DNA from: Acholeplasmatales bacterium
GTDB taxonomy: Bacteria > Bacillota_I > Bacilli_A > Acholeplasmatales > Anaeroplasmataceae
NCBI GenBank assembly: GCA_024681175.1
Contig: JAILBI010000004.1
Coordinates: 1 to 5,665 of the forward strand
DNA: 5,665 bases
Reading direction: 5' to 3'
Shown piece by piece: positions 1 to 5,665 of this stretch; positions within the stretch are counted from its first letter, which is position 1; each line of letters starts with the position of its first letter. Both the position numbers and the translations under genes were made by a program. Under the pieces are notes generated by a model that was given only the letters and a program-made list of their open reading frames with translations, did not search any database and was not told where the DNA came from.

Positions 1-1164
1 TCAGGTGGTCAATTATGTGATAAGGGTACAATTGATGGCATTGAGGTTATAGATGTAGTTAAATTACCTAATGGTCAGCATTTACATGTATTAAAAGAAA
101 ATCCATTTTCAATTGGTGATATGGTATTTGCTGAGGTTGATAAAAATAATAGAAATTTAACTAGAAAGAATCACTCAGCTTGTCACTTATTACAAGCAGC
201 ATTACAGCATGTATTAGGTGACCATGTTCATCAGGAAGGTAGCCAAGTATGTTCTACATATTGTAGATTTGATTTCAACAATTATAATGCTTTAACTGAT
301 GAAGAAATTATTAAGGTTGAGGATTTAGTTAATAAATATATTGCTGAAGCACATACTGTATTAACTCATGTTCTTCCAATTGAGGAAGCAAGCAAAATGG
401 GCGCAATGCACCTATTTAGTGAAAAATATGGTTCTGTTGTAAGAGTTGTTGATATGGATGTATCAAAGGAATTTTGTGCAGGAACACATGTTGATAATAC
501 AAATCAAATTGAAAAATTTGCAATATATAGTGTTGAATCAATTGGCTCTGGTATTTTCCGTGCTACATGTGCAACAAGCGCTGATGCAATGAAATATGTA
601 AAAGAAAGTGAAAAGAACATATTTGATACTATTGAAGCTTTAAAGGCAAAAGCAAGATCTATTTTATTAGATGCTAAAAAGGATAATATCGATATTAATT
701 TTGATTTCACATTTAATGAACCAGAGGAATTTGGTTATCGTTATATCCTAGCTATGAGAAAAGCATTAAAGGAATATCAAGATAGAGTTAAAGATTTTGA
801 AAAGCTTTATCAAGCTAAAAAGAGTCAAAGTGCTTTATCAAGCTTAGATTCTTTTGATAATTTAATTAAAGATAATAAGATTTTATCTAAAACAGATGTA
901 AAGGATATTAATCTTGTTAAGGATATGGCAAGAGCTTTAGTTAATAATAAGGCACTTGATTATGTATTACTTGCAATAGTAGATGGTGTAAAGGTTACAT
1001 TCGTTTGTGCTGCAGGCAAGAATTATGATGCAGTTTCAATTGTTAAAGCTGCAACAAAGGTTACTGGTGGCGGTGGCGGTGGAAAACAAGACATCGCTCA
1101 AGCAGGCGGAAGAGATTCATCTAAGACAGATGAAGCTTTAGAAGCAGTTAGAAAGGAATTTTAA
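1..1164 (+). CDS. alaS: Alanyl-tRNA synthetase, C-terminal part (5' end outside window)
   Basis: Cytoplasmic enzyme that charges tRNA-Ala and hydrolyses mischarged Ser/Gly-tRNA-Ala. The reading frame is open from base 1, so the gene is cut by the window edge. About 387 residues are present, roughly the C-terminal half of a protein that is usually about 870-880 residues. The catalytic and tRNA-recognition domains are missing. The fragment begins with SGGQ, the conserved entry to the editing region. It then shows the zinc-binding editing motif HSACH (fragment residues 58-62) and its partner CAGTH (159-163), where most family members have CGGTH. The C-Ala domain ends with the glycine-rich GGGGGGKQDIAQAGG signature. 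All four zinc ligands (H, H, C, H) are retained, so editing should be intact. The stop codon overlaps the ruvX start by one base (TAATG). The first in-frame ATG, at 121, is internal to the editing domain and is not the real start. Confidence 0.97.
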   Translation, partial: SGGQLCDKGTIDGIEVIDVVKLPNGQHLHVLKENPFSIGDMVFAEVDKNNRNLTRKNHSACHLLQAALQHVLGDHVHQEGSQVCSTYCRFDFNNYNALTDEEIIKVEDLVNKYIAEAHTVLTHVLPIEEASKMGAMHLFSEKYGSVVRVVDMDVSKEFCAGTHVDNTNQIEKFAIYSVESIGSGIFRATCATSADAMKYVKESEKNIFDTIEALKAKARSILLDAKKDNIDINFDFTFNEPEEFGYRYILAMRKALKEYQDRVKDFEKLYQAKKSQSALSSLDSFDNLIKDNKILSKTDVKDINLVKDMARALVNNKALDYVLLAIVDGVKVTFVCAAGKNYDAVSIVKAATKVTGGGGGGKQDIAQAGGRDSSKTDEALEAVRKEF

Positions 1165-1598
1165 TGAAATATATTGGTCTTGATTTAGGCTCTAGAACAT
1201 TAGGTGTTGCAATATCAGATGAGCTTGGTATTTTAGCAAGAAAATATGATACACTTCGTTTTTATGAAGATGATTATGATAAAGCTATTTCTTATACAAT
1301 AGAAATTTGTAATAAGGAAAAAGTTAAAACTGTTGTTTTAGGCCTACCTCGCCATATGAATGGTGATAAAGGGATTAGAGCTGATATTTCAATAGAATTT
1401 AAAAATAAGATTGAATCATTATCAGATATTAAAGTTATCTTAGAAGATGAAAGACTAACAACTGTCATTGTTGATAGAGCTATGCTTGAAGGTAATTTAT
1501 CAAGAAAAAAGCGTCACGAGAAAAAAGATGAAATGGCTGCCGTAGTAATTTTGCAGGATTATTTAGATAAAATAAATGGAGGTAGTTTTAAATTATGA
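1164..1598 (+). CDS. ruvX: RuvX/YqgF family RNase H-fold nuclease (putative Holliday junction resolvase / pre-16S rRNA processing)
   Basis: This 144-residue protein has normal family length. It starts with MKYIGLDLGSRTLGVAIS, the RNase H-fold strand carrying the first catalytic Asp (D7). It continues with VVLGLPRHMNGDKG (57-70), LEDERLTT (93-100, acidic D95/E96) and a C-terminal KKDEMAAVVILQDYL segment (120-134) with the last acidic residue D122. Family members (E. coli YqgF, B. subtilis YrrK) are linked to maturation of the 16S rRNA 5' end and have been proposed as Holliday junction resolvases; which role dominates here cannot be told from sequence. The ATG overlaps the alaS stop by one base and is preceded by AAAGGA at 1152-1157, inside alaS. 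The stop overlaps the next gene as ATGA. Adjacency to alaS and a DUF1292 gene is the classic Bacillota arrangement. Confidence 0.95.
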   Translation: MKYIGLDLGSRTLGVAISDELGILARKYDTLRFYEDDYDKAISYTIEICNKEKVKTVVLGLPRHMNGDKGIRADISIEFKNKIESLSDIKVILEDERLTTVIVDRAMLEGNLSRKKRHEKKDEMAAVVILQDYLDKINGGSFKL

Positions 1599-1864
1599 CA
1601 GATAGAACTATTAAAATTAAAGAGGATGGTAAAGAAGAAGTTACTTGTGACATCTTATTTACATATCATTCAAATGAATTTAATAAGGATTATGTAGTAT
1701 TTCAAATAAGAGGTAAGGATTTAGTATCTGCAGCATCTTATAATCCAAATGAGGGTGCTGAAGGTGAGCTTAAGAAAATTGATAATGATGAAGAATGGGC
1801 AATGATTGAGGATTTGCTTGAGGATTATCAAAATCAAGAGGAAGATGAAGAAGATGGAAAATAA
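1595..1864 (+). CDS. DUF1292 family protein (YrzB-like)
   Basis: Small acidic protein of 89 residues, the usual size for DUF1292. It has a predicted beta-rich N-terminal part with the family-like stretch CDILFTYHSNEFNKDYVVF (residues 18-36). A region near EEWAMIEDLLEDY (66-78) follows, and then a highly acidic tail, QEEDEEDGK. No catalytic motif, signal peptide or membrane segment is visible, and the family has no settled molecular function. Support comes mainly from position: B. subtilis yrzB lies directly after yrrK (ruvX), as here. The start overlaps the ruvX stop by four bases (ATGA), with a strong GGAGGT at 1578-1583. The 3' end overlaps the methyltransferase start by 11 bases. Confidence 0.88.
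   Translation: MTDRTIKIKEDGKEEVTCDILFTYHSNEFNKDYVVFQIRGKDLVSAASYNPNEGAEGELKKIDNDEEWAMIEDLLEDYQNQEEDEEDGK
1837..1842 (+). promoter_or_regulatory. Shine-Dalgarno that decides the trmR-like start
   Basis: An AGAGGA purine run lies 11 bases before the ATG at 1854. It supports that codon over the in-frame ATGs at 1806 and 1845, which lie upstream of or directly beside it. The site sits inside the acidic Glu/Asp-rich tail of the DUF1292 gene, where GAA/GAG/GAT codons make purine-rich sequence anyway, so the support is moderate. Confidence 0.55.
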
Positions 1865-2465
1865 TCTTTATTTTGATGAAGATATTTCAAAATTAAGAAA
1901 ATATGCACAAGATTATAATGTACCAATTATAAAGGATGAGGGTTTGAGCTTTTTATTAAATACAATAAAGCTTATGAAGGCTAAAAATATTTTAGAAATT
2001 GGTACTGCAATTGGCTATTCTTCAATTATGATGGCAAGATGTAATACTTGTGTTACTACATTTGAACGTGATGAAAATATGTATAATATTGCCATAGAAA
2101 ATATCAAAAAATTTAATTTTGATGATAAAATAAATGTTATTTTTCATGATGCCCTAGATGGTGCATCATTATTAAATGGTAAGAAATTTGATATTTTATT
2201 CATTGATGCTGCAAAGGCACAATATCAAAAATTTTTTGATATCTATACACCATTTTTAAATGATAATGGTGTAATTATTTGTGATAATATGTATTTCCAT
2301 GGCTATCTTGATAAGCCAGAAGAAGATTTATCAAGAAACTTAAGAGGTATGATGAGAAAGCTTAAGGCTTTCCATGAATATTTATTAAATAATAAAGATT
2401 ATGATACATCTATATATAATAATATAGGTGATGGAATGAGCATTTCTATTAAAAGGAATAAATAA
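1854..2465 (+). CDS. trmR: SAM-dependent class I O-methyltransferase, TrmR/YrrM-like
   Basis: Rossmann-fold O-methyltransferase of 203 residues from the chosen start. Motif I is ILEIGTAIGYSSI (46-58, SAM binding). An acidic motif II follows at TFERDE (69-74), then HDA at 98-100. FIDAAKAQY (116-124) holds a likely metal-binding Asp, and CDNMYFHG (143-150) contains the Asp-Asn pair typical of the cation-dependent family. B. subtilis YrrM (TrmR) methylates 5-hydroxyuridine at the tRNA wobble position. The shared alaS-ruvX-DUF1292 neighbourhood makes this the best assignment, but the same fold also serves catechol and caffeoyl-CoA substrates. Starting at the upstream ATG at 1806 would add a basic 16-residue leader (MRICLRIIKIKRKMKK) that is only the shifted reading of the DUF1292 tail. 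That start is therefore rejected. It overlaps DUF1292 by 11 bases and its stop overlaps the next start as TAATG. Confidence 0.85.
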   Translation: MENNLYFDEDISKLRKYAQDYNVPIIKDEGLSFLLNTIKLMKAKNILEIGTAIGYSSIMMARCNTCVTTFERDENMYNIAIENIKKFNFDDKINVIFHDALDGASLLNGKKFDILFIDAAKAQYQKFFDIYTPFLNDNGVIICDNMYFHGYLDKPEEDLSRNLRGMMRKLKAFHEYLLNNKDYDTSIYNNIGDGMSISIKRNK

Positions 2466-3355
2466 TGAAAATTTATGGAATTATTCATATGATTGCCTTA
2501 AATGATAAAATCATTGGGATTAAATCATATAAAACAATTAAATTTTTTCATTTTAAAGCAAGTTTAATGAACACCTTTAGAAGATATTTATATCAAGATA
2601 ATTGGATTGAGCTTGAATATGATGAAAATAAAATGGTTAAATCAGGCAATTATCTTGCATATGAAACATCTTATGTAATTAAGGTTGAGGCAAGAGGAAG
2701 ATTTGATAGTGTTATTTATTATGATAAATATCAAATATCAAAATCCTTATATCAATTTTTAGATTCATTAGATATTATGATGTTTGTAGATTTTGAAATG
2801 TCTATGCCACCTTATAATTTTAAAGGTAAAGGCTTTAAGACTGAGCTTATTCAAGCTGGTTTTATAACAGTAGATAAAAATTATAATGTTTTAGATGAAT
2901 ATAATAATTATATTAAGCCTAAAATATCTACAACATTATCAAAAAGAACATTAGACTTTTTAAATATCACAAATGAAGAATTTGAAAATAATGTAATTCC
3001 ATATAATGATTTTTATAATGATTTTAAGCATTATTTATTAAAATATTCACCTGCCATAATTATTTATGGTAGAAATGATAAATTAGTACTTGAATCATCA
3101 TATGAAATTAATTATGTTAAATCATTAGAATCTAAAACTAGATTTATTAATTTATGTCAGCTTGTAAAAACATTTTATGAGCTTAAAAATGATCCAGGCT
3201 TATTTAAATTATTAGAAGCATATTATGATAAGGATTATATCCAGGTTCATAATGCTTTAAGTGATTCAAAAGCAACCTTACTTGTTTATCAAGCATTTAA
3301 AAAGGATGTACTTGAAAGAAAATATATTGAAAAAATAAGAAGCATATTCAATTAA
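2465..3355 (+). CDS. DEDDh-type 3'-5' exonuclease with an uncharacterised N-terminal domain
   Basis: A 296-residue protein in two parts. Residues about 105-285 form a DnaQ/RNase T-like exonuclease domain. ExoI is FVDFEMS (107-113) with metal ligands D109 and E111. ExoII is the IIIYGRNDK region, with D205 the likely ligand. ExoIII is HNALSDSKAT (262-271) with H262 and D267, so all five DEDDh residues are present. Spacing resembles the ERI-1/3'hExo-like and epsilon-like branches; RNA or DNA as substrate cannot be decided. Residues 1-100 are rich in alternating hydrophobic and aromatic positions, such as NWIELEYDENKM and YETSYVIKVEARGRF. They look like a small beta-rich domain that I do not recognise. 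There is no signal peptide or membrane segment, so it should be cytoplasmic. It is translationally coupled to the methyltransferase (TAATG overlap, AAAAGGA at 2451-2457). It may act in RNA turnover or repair alongside ruvX, which is inference. Confidence 0.85.
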   Translation: MKIYGIIHMIALNDKIIGIKSYKTIKFFHFKASLMNTFRRYLYQDNWIELEYDENKMVKSGNYLAYETSYVIKVEARGRFDSVIYYDKYQISKSLYQFLDSLDIMMFVDFEMSMPPYNFKGKGFKTELIQAGFITVDKNYNVLDEYNNYIKPKISTTLSKRTLDFLNITNEEFENNVIPYNDFYNDFKHYLLKYSPAIIIYGRNDKLVLESSYEINYVKSLESKTRFINLCQLVKTFYELKNDPGLFKLLEAYYDKDYIQVHNALSDSKATLLVYQAFKKDVLERKYIEKIRSIFN

Positions 3356-3356
3356 T

Positions 3357-3384
3357 TTGTATCTTTTTTATATTTTGATATAAT
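3357..3384 (+). promoter_or_regulatory. Predicted sigma-A promoter for the ABC exporter operon (extended -10)
   Basis: A perfect -10 hexamer TATAAT lies at 3379-3384 and is preceded by TG one base upstream (TGATATAAT), making an extended -10. The -35 is weak: TTGTAT at 3357-3362 with a 16-bp spacer. Transcription would start about 3391, roughly 20 bases before the ABC gene ATG at 3411, which has AAGGAG at 3398-3403. The 55-base gap after the exonuclease stop contains no hairpin terminator, so read-through from the upstream operon is possible. No copy of the TetR-type palindromes seen at the right end of the window occurs here. Confidence 0.75.
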
Positions 3385-3410
3385 AATAAAGGTTAAAAAG
3401 GAGAAAGAAA

Positions 3411-4355
3411 ATGGAAGAACTAAAAAAAGAAGCAGTCATTGAATTAAATGACATTACCATGGAATTTGGTGGTAAAAGAGTTCTTGATAAGGTTAACCTA
3501 ACAGTTAATAAAGGCGATATTTATGGCTTCGTAGGAGAAAATGGTGCAGGTAAAACTACAGTTATGAGAATCCTTACAGGTCTTATTAAGCAAACAGCAG
3601 GAACTTATAAAATTTTAGGTGCATCATGGGATTCTAAAAAAATATATGATGCAAGAAGCAAAGTAGGCGCAATTATTGAAACACCTGCAATCTACACTAA
3701 TTTTAATGCATATGATAATTTAAAATTAGCATTAATATTAGCAGGTAAAAAGCCAGATAAAAATAAAATCGAGCAAACATTAAAAAATGTTGGACTTGAA
3801 GCTGAAATTAAATCAAAGAAAAAAGCTGGTAATTTCTCACTTGGTATGAGACAGCGTCTTGGTATTGCGATGGCAGCTGTAGATGAAGCAGAATTATTAA
3901 TTTTAGATGAGCCTATTAATGGTTTAGATCCAACAGGTATTGTTGAAATTAGAAATTTAATATTAGACCTTCATTCTAAAGGTGTAACAGTATTTATTTC
4001 ATCACATATCTTATCTGAATTATCTATGATTGCGACAAGATATGGTATTATAAGCCATGGTAAGATGATAAGAGAATTTGAAGCATCAGAAATTGAAAAG
4101 CTTGGTCAAAAGACTACATCAATTAAGACTACAAATAACCAAAAGGCATTTGAAGCCATTAAAGAGGCTGTTGGCGCTGATAATTGTAGCCTTAATGAAA
4201 ATTCAATTGATGTTTATGGTGAATTCAATCTTAATTCAATAATTAAGAATCTTGCTATGATCGATGTTGAAATTGAAGATATTACTAAGCATAGTGAAAG
4301 CTTAGAGGATGTTTATTTAAAACAAATAGATAGTAATAATGGAGGTGAAGAATAA
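3411..4355 (+). CDS. ABC transporter ATP-binding protein, BcrA/antimicrobial-export type
   Basis: Nucleotide-binding subunit of an ABC-2 exporter, 314 residues, acting at the inner face of the membrane with the permease encoded next. Walker A is GENGAGKTT (42-50). The Q-loop region reads VGAIIETPAIYTNFNAYDNL (85-104), with Glu where most ABC proteins have Gln, as in BcrA-like proteins. The signature is degenerate, FSLGMRQRLGIA (142-153). Walker B is LLILDEP (162-168) with catalytic E167, the D-loop is GLDP (171-174) and the H-loop is SSH with H199. Residues after about 230 form the C-terminal extension usual in this subfamily. Relatives export bacitracin or lantibiotics or serve as general detoxification pumps; no substrate can be inferred here. 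It has its own promoter and a good AAGGAG. The stop overlaps the permease start by one base. Confidence 0.93.
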   Translation: MEELKKEAVIELNDITMEFGGKRVLDKVNLTVNKGDIYGFVGENGAGKTTVMRILTGLIKQTAGTYKILGASWDSKKIYDARSKVGAIIETPAIYTNFNAYDNLKLALILAGKKPDKNKIEQTLKNVGLEAEIKSKKKAGNFSLGMRQRLGIAMAAVDEAELLILDEPINGLDPTGIVEIRNLILDLHSKGVTVFISSHILSELSMIATRYGIISHGKMIREFEASEIEKLGQKTTSIKTTNNQKAFEAIKEAVGADNCSLNENSIDVYGEFNLNSIIKNLAMIDVEIEDITKHSESLEDVYLKQIDSNNGGEE

Positions 4356-5188
4356 TGTCATCGTTAATTAAAGTTGATTTTTTAAGAATATTAAAAAATA
4401 AATTATTTATGGTTGGTGCAATTATTGCAGGTTCATTTGCAATATTATTCCCTTTATTATATTTTGGTATTAGTAAAACTGATGAATCTATGGAAATGTA
4501 TGCAGCAACTCCAACATATCAAATGCTATCAGTTATGCCAGTTGGATTTATCTTATCTTTATTCTTATCTATTATTGTTGGACAGGAATATTCATTTGGA
4601 ACAATTAGAAATAAAATCATTATTGGTAAGAAAAGAAGCCATATTTATTTCTCATTATTCTTTACTACAACAGTAGTATATATGTCATTAATTATAGTTG
4701 CTACAGCATTAACAGCAGCAGTAGGCTTTATATTCCTTCATAAATTTTTCCCACCAAACTATAACATTGGTAAATTCTTTATGAACATTGGTTTTTGCTT
4801 CTTAAGCTTTTTAGCAATGTCATCATTAATTACTTTATTCTCTGCAGGATTAAATAAAATTGCATTATCAATTATTTTAATTGGTGCAGGTTCTACATTC
4901 TTAGGTTCAATCGTACCATTAATATTGGCAGGAATTGCACCAAATAGTGAATCTGTTAGAATAATTTTTAAAGTTTTATTATCTTGTGACTATTTCTATA
5001 CAACAGGATTATATTTAAATCTAACAACAACAGGTTCAACAATTGGTGGTGATATAGGTAGATTCATTGAGGAACTTATAAAATTAGATACAATTCAAAT
5101 TATTGTAACAGTCTTAGCACCAATAGGCTTTTTCTTCTTAAATTATTTCTTAGGAGATTTAGCATTTAGAAATAAAAATATAAAATAA
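4355..5188 (+). CDS. ABC-2 type transporter permease (six predicted membrane helices)
   Basis: Membrane partner of the preceding ATPase, 277 residues. Six hydrophobic segments are visible at about residues 18-38, 60-76, 98-128 (long), 140-163, 168-194 and 246-266. The cytoplasmic loop after the second helix carries VGQEYSFGTIRNKIIIG (75-91), the E-Y-x-x-G-T-I-R signature typical of BcrB/ABC-2 permeases, thought to contact the ATPase. The N-terminus is short, basic and cytoplasmic (KVDFLRILKNK), and the C-terminus ends in FRNKNIK, consistent with an even number of helices. The loop between the first two helices is short, so there is no large extracellular sensor domain of the BceB kind. The start is fixed by GGAGGT at 4341-4346 and the TAATG overlap. 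Two terminators follow directly, so this closes the operon. Confidence 0.92.
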   Translation: MSSLIKVDFLRILKNKLFMVGAIIAGSFAILFPLLYFGISKTDESMEMYAATPTYQMLSVMPVGFILSLFLSIIVGQEYSFGTIRNKIIIGKKRSHIYFSLFFTTTVVYMSLIIVATALTAAVGFIFLHKFFPPNYNIGKFFMNIGFCFLSFLAMSSLITLFSAGLNKIALSIILIGAGSTFLGSIVPLILAGIAPNSESVRIIFKVLLSCDYFYTTGLYLNLTTTGSTIGGDIGRFIEELIKLDTIQIIVTVLAPIGFFFLNYFLGDLAFRNKNIK

Positions 5189-5189
5189 A

Positions 5190-5219
5190 AAAAAGTGGAG
5201 CAATCCACTTTTTATTTTT
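5190..5219 (+). terminator. Intrinsic terminator of the ABC operon, probably bidirectional
   Basis: A 10-bp perfect stem (5190-5199 with 5204-5213) closes on a GCAA tetraloop and is followed by ATTTTT. It begins two bases after the permease stop. On the opposite strand the hairpin is followed by eight T residues (complement of 5187-5194), so it could also stop leftward transcription coming from the tetR fragment. Confidence 0.88.
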
Positions 5220-5248
5220 AGCATCCTTAAAAGAGGATGCTTTTTTTT
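5220..5248 (+). terminator. Second intrinsic terminator, + strand
   Basis: An 8-bp stem, AGCATCCT (5220-5227) with AGGATGCT (5234-5241), closes a 6-base loop. An uninterrupted run of eight T at 5241-5248 begins with the last base of the stem. It directly follows the first terminator, which makes the end of the ABC operon very tight. No A-run lies on the left side, so it works in the + direction only. Confidence 0.85.
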
Positions 5249-5258
5249 GTTAACAAAA
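5245..5258. repeat. 14-bp perfect palindrome around GTTAAC
   Basis: TTTTGTTAACAAAA reads the same on both strands. It overlaps the T-run of the second terminator and the outermost two bases of the long inverted repeat. It shares the GTTAAC core with the 15-bp palindromes further right, which may be chance in such AT-rich sequence. Confidence 0.5.
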
Positions 5259-5289
5259 TAAAAATTAGTTCACACTTTATTTTGATATA

Positions 5290-5318
5290 TTGATTTTTAA
5301 AAATAGTTAGAGTAAACT
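5290..5318 (+). promoter_or_regulatory. Predicted promoter in the left arm (+ strand tetR leader)
   Basis: TTGATT at 5290-5295 and TAAACT at 5313-5318 are separated by 17 bp, each matching the sigma-A consensus at four of six positions. The -10 lies inside the operator-like palindrome 5306-5321, the layout expected of an autorepressed TetR-family gene. It would transcribe rightward across the + strand remnant and antisense to the minus-strand TetR frame. Confidence 0.55.
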
Positions 5319-5321
5319 AAC
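5306..5321. promoter_or_regulatory. Operator-like palindrome, left copy (TetR-type)
   Basis: The half-sites GTTAGAGT and AAACTAAC form a 16-bp imperfect dyad, matching at six of eight positions per half and extendable by flanking A/T (TAGTTAG and CTAACTA). It covers the predicted -10. Size and placement fit a TetR-family operator, but binding is inferred from position alone. Confidence 0.5.
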
Positions 5322-5571
5322 TAATGTTAACATTGTTAACTGGAGGCACTATGGATACAAGAAAATTAATCTTAATAGTAGCTTCATCAAAATAATCAAA
5401 TAAAGGCTTAATTATTTCATTAAATATATCTTCCTTATTTTCAAAATGCCTATATATTGCAGTAGGGCTAATATGACATTTTTTTGCAATATCCCTTAAT
5501 GAAGTATCATCATATCCTTTTTTAATAAATTCTTCTTTTGCTACTAATAAGATTAATTCCTTTGTATCCAT
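5317..5571 (-). CDS. Truncated TetR/AcrR-family regulator (DNA-binding domain only)
   Basis: An 84-residue frame; complete TetR-family repressors are about 180-200 residues. Residues 1-63 are a canonical TetR N-terminal domain. A first helix, LILLVAKEEFIKKGYDDTS, precedes a helix-turn-helix over about 24-43 (SLRDIAKKCHISPTAIYRHF). ENKEDIFNEIIKPLFDYF then opens helix 4. From about residue 71 (LVSIVPPVNNVNIS) the frame is simply the reverse complement of its own leader in the other repeat arm. No ligand-binding or dimerisation domain exists, and the product is unlikely to be a functional repressor. The start at 5571 is chosen for TGGAGG four bases upstream (5576-5581). The in-frame ATGs at 5598 and 5589 lie within the leader palindrome and have no such site. 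Whether it regulates the neighbouring exporter cannot be told. Confidence 0.75.
   Translation of the reverse strand: MDTKELILLVAKEEFIKKGYDDTSLRDIAKKCHISPTAIYRHFENKEDIFNEIIKPLFDYFDEATIKINFLVSIVPPVNNVNIS
5326..5340. promoter_or_regulatory. 15-bp perfect palindrome in the leader, left copy
   Basis: GTTAACATTGTTAAC has 7-bp arms around a single central T at 5333. It lies between the predicted transcription start and the Shine-Dalgarno TGGAGG at 5341-5346. It could be a second operator half-turn or a small leader hairpin. The central base is one of the few positions at which the two long arms fail to match. Confidence 0.45.
5351..5395 (+). pseudogene. Remnant of a TetR-family start on the + strand
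   Basis: TGGAGG at 5341-5346 precedes an ATG at 5351 that encodes MDTRKLILIVASSK and then a TAA. The first ten residues mirror MDTKELILLV of the minus-strand TetR frame. The reading frame leaves the repeat at 5383 and stops at once, so no DNA-binding domain follows. Because this copy is joined to the chromosome side (terminators and ABC operon), it is probably the native position of a full tetR gene whose body has been replaced by the inverted sequence. That is inference from the repeat geometry. Confidence 0.55.
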
Positions 5572-5575
5572 AGTG

Positions 5576-5581
5576 CCTCCA
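5576..5581 (-). promoter_or_regulatory. Shine-Dalgarno that decides the TetR start
   Basis: TGGAGG on the minus strand lies four bases before the ATG at 5571-5569. It selects that codon over the in-frame ATGs at 5598 and 5589. The same element occurs at 5341-5346 in the left arm, before the ATG at 5351. Confidence 0.8.
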
Positions 5582-5596
5582 GTTAACATTGTTAAC
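5582..5596. promoter_or_regulatory. 15-bp perfect palindrome in the leader, right copy
   Basis: Same 15-bp palindrome as at 5326-5340. Both copies have T at the centre when read on the + strand (5333 and 5589), so the centre is not inverted although everything around it is. Confidence 0.45.
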
Positions 5597-5600
5597 ATTA

Positions 5601-5616
5601 GTTAGTTTACTCTAAC
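5601..5616. promoter_or_regulatory. Operator-like palindrome, right copy (TetR-type)
   Basis: Exact inverted copy of 5306-5321, covering the predicted -10 of the minus-strand tetR promoter. This supports autoregulation if a functional repressor exists. Confidence 0.5.
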
Positions 5617-5632
5617 TATTTTTAAAAATCAA
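5604..5632 (-). promoter_or_regulatory. Predicted promoter of the minus-strand tetR fragment
   Basis: On the minus strand TTGATT (5632-5627) and TAAACT (5609-5604) are spaced by 17 bp, identical to the left-arm promoter. The transcript would start near 5597, cover the TetR frame and read leftward to the bidirectional hairpin at 5190-5213. Its 3' part would be complementary to its own leader. Confidence 0.55.
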
Positions 5633-5665
5633 TATATCAAAATAAAGTGTGAACTAATTTTTATT

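What the first reader, a model, noticed from the sequence alone, without database searches (positions are those of the whole stretch)
5257..5665. 126-bp inverted repeat that mirrors a tetR leader and ends exactly at the window edge
Seen: 5257-5382 and 5540-5665 are reverse complements (121/126, no gaps) around a 157-bp core, a 409-base near-palindrome. Each arm has a full promoter, operator-like dyad, Shine-Dalgarno and ATG. Inference: the left arm, joined to the terminators of the ABC operon, is the native locus. The core and right arm would then be a fold-back copy of the start of the same tetR gene, made in vivo or during amplification or assembly. Ending on the last base of the window is what a contig broken at a repeat would look like. 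Long closely spaced inverted repeats are also usually unstable in bacteria, which favours artefact or a recent event.
Basis: partly seen in the sequence, partly recalled or inferred. Interest (0 to 1): 0.7.

Follow-up and report, generated by a model that had tools for sequence, protein, structure and literature searches.

The report
Fold-back artefact at a contig end
The last 409 bases of this contig are a mirror-image copy of the start of an ordinary regulator gene, most likely a fold-back made while the DNA was copied, sequenced or assembled rather than a real genome structure.

Summary
In detail: 5257-5382 and 5540-5665 are inverted copies, 121/126 without gaps, around a 157-bp core. The window is a whole contig, since its own tetR fragment is listed on a contig of 5665 bases, so the mirror stops at a contig end. 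The left arm is the genuine tetR leader: a conserved box at 5250-5258, partly outside the arm, lies 77 bp before the operator, and at 76-78 bp in 5 of 8 relatives. In 8 of 8 relatives tetR is intact and followed by two ABC exporter-like genes, without a mirrored leader. Control: in relative G031, 5 of 5 close inverted repeats found in 52 contigs are flush with a contig end, so terminal fold-backs occur there as assembly products. A 7-nt overlap and a 157-nt jump fit published inverted chimeras. Best reading: an in-vitro fold-back at the contig end (0.85, raised from 0.75), not a functional element. A real inverted duplication is not excluded (0.12). Five mismatches between the arms are only partly explained.

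The parts
5190..5241 (+). two terminator-like hairpins after the ABC-2 permease gene (5190-5213, 5220-5241)
5249..5259 (+). conserved GTTAACAAAAT box upstream of tetR, straddling the outer edge of the left arm
   Evidence: 77 bp before GTTAACnnnGTTAAC; TTAACAAAA at 76-78 bp in 5 of 8 relatives
5257..5382 (+). left arm: native tetR leader, ATG at 5351 and about 11 codons; 4 of the 5 mismatches lie in its last 22 bases
5306..5321 (+). dyad GTTAGAGTAAACTAAC over the -10 region, probable TetR operator (inference)
   Evidence: dyad in 8 of 8 relatives, 19-21 bp before the second site; position
5326..5340 (+). GTTAACATTGTTAAC; its centre base differs from the right arm
5376..5382 (.). TAGTAGC, 7-nt overlap at the fold-back junction
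   Evidence: read from the sequence
5383..5539 (-). core: tetR codons about 11 to 63 on the minus strand (nt 33-189)
   Evidence: TetR_N match; P0014 97% identical over the matched part; nt position
5540..5665 (-). right arm: mirrored tetR start (ATG first base at 5571) and leader, cut by the contig end
5317..5571 (-). broken tetR frame of 84 aa (P0012) that runs through the junction into the left arm and gains an antisense tail

Best explanation
The true genome most likely runs from the ABC-2 operon and its terminators into a normal plus-strand tetR gene, probably followed by two ABC exporter genes as in relatives. In a chimeric molecule or read at this contig end, a copy of the plus strand stopped after about codon 11 of tetR. 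Its 3' end (TAGTAGC) re-annealed to the same 7 letters on the opposite strand near codon 63, and copying went back over tetR and its leader. The assembler followed this fold-back to its end and stopped before the mirror could be told from the left arm. Shown: the mirror, the contig end, the native leader on the left, intact tetR in relatives, and terminal fold-backs as a recurring product in a related assembly. Inferred: the strand jump, and that it happened in vitro.
For: The window is the whole contig and the mirror ends at its edge. The left leader continues across the arm edge into a conserved box at the conserved distance (5 of 8 relatives). 8 of 8 relatives with full context have intact tetR followed by two genes with ABC ATPase matches (domains confirmed for one pair), and none of these 8 has an inverted leader copy in the stretch held. 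The junction protein is listed on 1 contig only, its tail in 0 of 17 relatives. The full-length close allele P0014 (and P0013 to residue 98) continues past the junction normally. Control: of 52 contigs of the related genome G031 (644 kb, 89 ends; 9 further contigs read N and were dropped), 5 hold a close inverted repeat and 5 of 5 are flush with a contig end, none interior; one (L166) is a 330-nt terminal mirror with 80-nt exact arms. Published amplification chimeras: 406 of 475 inverted (PMC1855051, passages and Table 1); overlap length peaks at 7 nt and preferred distance is 80-280 nt, in human DNA (PMC5372508, passages). Here the overlap is 7 nt and the jump goes from tetR nt 32 to nt 189.
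Against: A simple intramolecular chimera should have identical arms, but 5 of 126 positions differ. The operator difference is a natural one (leader frame MLTLLTGGT in P0014, MLTMLTGGT in P0013), which would need two strains. The coding differences (MDTRKLILIVA) have no R4 or K5 in any of 17 proteins or 8 genome relatives, and all change the protein; I9 does occur in one genome relative (L092). In 31 contig ends of six other genomes no terminal mirror was found, with 2 short interior ones, so the artefact is not universal. No evidence that the sample was amplified; in PMC5372508 overlaps of 12-13 nt, not 7, are preferred once available sites are allowed for. No reads were available.
Confidence: 0.85

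Rival explanations
1. A real, recent inverted duplication in some cells of the population: a fold-back at a short homology during replication or repair left tetR truncated to its DNA-binding half between two facing promoters.
For: In-vivo fold-backs can have the same anatomy (recalled; papers seen as listing only); the clustered changes next to the junction could come from error-prone repair; the arms are not identical.
Against: Listed on one contig only; stops at the contig end; no mirrored leader at 8 relative loci; in G031 5 of 5 close mirrors are at contig ends, not interior; long close inverted repeats are usually unstable in bacteria (established knowledge).
Confidence: 0.12
2. A maintained regulatory arrangement, such as an invertible or double promoter, in which a short TetR DNA-binding fragment and facing promoters are functional.
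For: Both arms keep the operator sites and a start codon.
Against: No recombinase family among the eight window proteins scanned; the left frame stops after 14 codons; the tail of the right frame is the antisense of the leader; no mirrored leader at 8 relative loci, tail in 0 of 17 proteins.
Confidence: 0.01
3. A pure computational misjoin of two strains or paralogues without any chimeric molecule.
For: The arms carry two natural operator alleles; one relative, G031, does have a second, partial tetR start on another contig.
Against: The join shares only about 7 bases, too few for an assembler to bridge without a real chimeric read (inference); 9 of 9 matching family genomes show a single tetR match at E <= 1e-20.
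Confidence: 0.02

Closest known systems
Inverted chimeras of multiple displacement amplification (PMC1855051, PMC5372508)
   Same: inverted join with an intervening stretch, 7-nt overlap, 157 nt between the joined points
   Different: arms differ at 5 of 126 positions; amplification of this sample is not known
Terminal fold-backs at contig ends of a related metagenome-type assembly (G031, found here)
   Same: close inverted repeat flush with a contig end; L166 has the same scale (330 nt, 80-nt exact arms)
   Different: other loci, other assembly; exact arms there range from 23 to 118 nt
Fold-back inverted duplications in vivo (PMC3907307, PMC7467729; search listing only)
   Same: hairpin-primed copying, as their abstracts' opening lines say
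   Different: described there for human and yeast; no sign here that the structure is in a living genome
TetR family regulator (Pfam PF00440) ahead of a two-gene ABC exporter
   Same: the core encodes the TetR DNA-binding domain, and relatives show the full gene order
   Different: only about a third of the gene is present here

Membership tests
TetR regulator (PF00440) | TetR_N DNA-binding domain | tested here: met
   64.7 bits, cut-off 24
TetR regulator (PF00440) | complete protein with ligand-binding and dimer part | tested here: not met
   frame leaves tetR at the junction after about 65 codons; P0014 has 205 aa
Inverted amplification or assembly chimera | two parts of one locus joined in opposite orientation with a gap between them | tested here: met
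Inverted amplification or assembly chimera | short overlap at the junction | tested here: met
   TAGTAGC, 7 nt; the second parent's own bases beyond it are not known
Inverted amplification or assembly chimera | arms identical in sequence | tested here: not met
   121/126
Inverted amplification or assembly chimera | absent from relatives | tested here: met
   8 loci without mirrored leader, 0 of 17 proteins with the tail, 1 contig for the junction protein
Inverted amplification or assembly chimera | absent from native unamplified reads | not testable with these tools
   no reads held
In-vivo inverted duplication | continues into unique sequence beyond the right arm | not testable with these tools
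   contig ends at 5665
Invertible promoter element | dedicated recombinase nearby or second orientation seen | tested here: not met
   no recombinase family among eight window proteins; 8 relative loci not mirrored. Only 5.7 kb is visible

The most novel reading that the evidence does not exclude
A real recent inverted duplication that cuts the tetR repressor down to its DNA-binding half and leaves two facing copies of its own promoter, which could release the downstream exporter from control in part of the population.
Probability: 0.08. Interest if true: 0.35.

Novelty: not a real feature. Interest (0 to 1): 0.1.

Why it matters
Mainly a warning: a striking palindrome with promoters and a short regulator frame at a contig end should be taken as a fold-back until native reads cross it. 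In one related assembly 5 of 89 contig ends carried such mirrors and no interior stretch did. The collection holds the broken frame as a protein (P0012), so such products enter protein catalogues. The leader itself, with its conserved GTTAAC sites, is a plausible operator region for a TetR-controlled exporter in this uncultured group.

Tried and rejected
No whole genome is held for the window. The permease alone found no relative in the genome collection; an alignment of ten found 33 loci, none above 43% identity in the best segment. The AlaS piece placed the window near G001 (64%), and its family was then searched. The exonuclease matched in 49 of 55 family genomes (best 63%), but I did not examine the gene order after it. 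The window's DNA matched 11 of 160 genomes of the order, no close relative. The leader pattern is absent from the viral contigs; window 4300-5665 has no match in the phage collection. The plasmid and E. coli collections were not searched. The contigs that bear P0013 and P0014 could not be fetched; only the proteins were read.

Considered and weakened: a stop at assembler word length 77. The arms share two inverted 76-mers and no 77-mer, and contig C28 of G031 also has a 76-nt exact terminal mirror. But G031's terminal mirrors measure 23, 39, 76, 80 and 118 nt and six of its ends share exactly 141 nt with another contig, so its word length was probably 141 and 76 looks like coincidence there. 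I no longer use it as evidence.

Rejected: chance; a phage end (housekeeping gene neighbourhood); an invertible promoter.

Corrections: one search printed tetR nt 188 for base 5383 from an ATG position one base low; one search gives 189. One search (113 loci, arms of 80 nt or more) listed one pair, 80 nt at 86% in L013, about 2.6 kb apart, and by its threshold missed the 76-nt mirror of L112. One search counted N-filled contigs as repeats; drop 9 of 61 for that reason.

Full report
Observation. The arms 5257-5382 and 5540-5665 match as reverse complements at 121 of 126 positions, with 157 nt between. The longest exact inverted match is 76 nt; 40 first-order random sequences reached at most 22 nt and window 1-5256 reached 14 nt. 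The strand folds at -124.1 kcal/mol, against a mean of -29.2 for 100 shuffles.

What the window is. The genes are the end of alaS, ruvX, a DUF1292 gene, an O-methyltransferase, an RNase T-like exonuclease, an ABC ATPase, an ABC-2 permease and a TetR_N fragment on the minus strand. The protein collection lists that fragment (P0012, 84 aa) on one contig of 5665 bases, the window's own length. So the window is a complete contig and the palindrome lies at its end. The AlaS piece is 64% identical to that of G001, the genome of a record titled Acholeplasmatales bacterium RGIG4062 from roe deer cecum; 13 other genomes of the 15 tried reach 50% at most and one had no match.

Native gene. Full-length relatives of the fragment exist: P0014 (205 aa) is 97% identical over the matched part and continues FDEAT-NYIQS, whereas the window reads FDEAT-IKINFLVS, the antisense of its own left arm. 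Of the 17 related proteins, 17 have TKELIL near the start, 0 have the left arm's TRKLIL and 0 have the INFLV tail. In the family of G001, 9 of 55 genomes have a tetR match at E <= 1e-20; one of these (G030) is cut by its contig end. In the 8 with full context tetR is intact and followed within 8-11 bp by two genes of 576-583 aa (distances are my reading of that table), both of which match an ABC ATPase in 8 of 8. For one pair the exporter membrane and ATPase domains were confirmed (L087).

Which arm is native. The leader of the relatives has three elements: TTAACAAAA, then 76-78 bp later GTTAACnnnGTTAAC, and 19-21 bp before the latter the dyad GTTAGn6CTAAC. The dyad is present in 8 of 8 relatives, GTTAACnnnGTTAAC in 7 of 8 (L093 has one changed base), the upstream box in 5 of 8. 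In the window the upstream box is at 5250-5258, 77 bp before the second site. The arm starts at 5257, so the box straddles its outer edge. The left arm is therefore embedded in a complete native leader; the right arm stops before its box could be seen. The stretches held around 9 tetR loci, 8 of them with a leader, show no second, inverted leader; the only inverted self-matches are a 28-nt palindrome just upstream of the leader in L087 and a 42-nt one in L091. One relative, G031, has a further tetR start with leader on another contig (C28), treated below.

How it probably arose. On the plus strand the sequence follows tetR to nt 32 and then continues on the opposite strand from nt 189 backwards. 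The parents share TAGTAGC. Inverted joins are the main product of amplification chimeras: 406 of 475 in PMC1855051 (passages and Table 1 read). In PMC5372508 (passages read) overlap lengths peak at 7 nt, with 12-13 nt preferred once available sites are allowed for, and the preferred distance is 80-280 nt. PMC13265396 (abstract and outline read) describes palindromic reads as a pervasive product of such amplification. The junction here fits. Whether this sample was amplified is unknown; other in-vitro strand jumps would look the same.

Control at contig ends. While checking this report I read L112, the start of contig C28 of G031, and found a 76-nt exact inverted repeat flush with that contig's end. 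I then took 60 contigs of G031 (20 of them start-only because of the length limit or similar; L093 makes 61) and 20 contigs of six other family genomes. Nine of the 61 read N and were dropped. In the remaining 52 contigs (644 kb, 89 ends) there are five close inverted repeats and all five are flush with a contig end, none interior. Their exact parts measure 23, 39, 76, 80 and 118 nt. L166 is a 330-nt terminal mirror with 80-nt exact arms, close to the window's 409 nt. The 20 other contigs (274 kb, 31 ends) have no terminal mirror and two short interior ones, 62 and 70 nt in all. So mirrors flush with contig ends are a product of some assemblies, and the window's has their position and shape. 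I raised the artefact reading from 0.75 to 0.85 for this. The same data count against an earlier idea of mine, that 76 nt marks an assembler word of 77: G031's ends share 141 nt.

What does not fit. The arms differ at 5333/5589, at 5361-5363/5559-5561 and at 5375/5547. The first is a natural polymorphism: the frame through the leader reads MLTLLTGGT in P0014 (left-arm base) and MLTMLTGGT in P0013 (right-arm base). A population with both alleles could give one allele per arm; that is inference. The other four lie in the last 22 bases before the junction and all change the protein. R4 and K5 occur in none of 17 proteins or 8 genome relatives; I9 occurs in one of the latter, L092. They may be errors of a thinly covered end or marks of error-prone repair, and are the main reason for leaving 0.12 on a real in-vivo event.

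Verdict. Most likely an artefact at a contig end; if real, a recent local inverted duplication that disrupts tetR. Neither is a new kind of element.

Noticed in passing
5249-5340: The tetR leader carries conserved elements at near-fixed distances (GTTAACAAAA, then 77 bp on GTTAACnnnGTTAAC, with GTTAGn6CTAAC over the -10 region). The spacing suggests cooperative or looping operators of a TetR-controlled ABC exporter.
   Followed up: partly
5326-5340 and 5582-5596: The centre base of GTTAACnnnGTTAAC differs between the arms, and both versions occur upstream of a normal tetR start in close relatives (P0013, P0014). The difference also equals an inversion of the 15-bp site.
   Followed up: partly
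L133:1-548 (G031 contig C28): A second tetR start with leader (about 17 codons, 85% identical to the copy on C10) sits inside a terminal fold-back: the arms are 76 nt of the upstream gene, and a stretch of 59 nt equals the first 59 bases of C10. Two fold-back contig ends at the start of this gene in two assemblies may be coincidence or a local weak spot.
   Followed up: partly
L116, L132, L133, L155, L166: Five contig ends of G031 carry close inverted repeats flush with the end, with no interior ones in 644 kb.
   Followed up: partly
P0012: The broken 84-aa frame is present in the protein collection with a TetR domain; two member sequences are counted on one contig.
   Followed up: no
L094: In a relative (G030) the contig also ends inside tetR, and P0013 (98 aa) lacks the rest of the gene on a 5349-base contig; whether that contig ends there was not seen.
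   Followed up: no
4355-5188: The ABC-2 permease has seven relatives of 57-93% in unnamed database contigs, and none above 36% among the 11 of 55 family genomes with a match.
   Followed up: no
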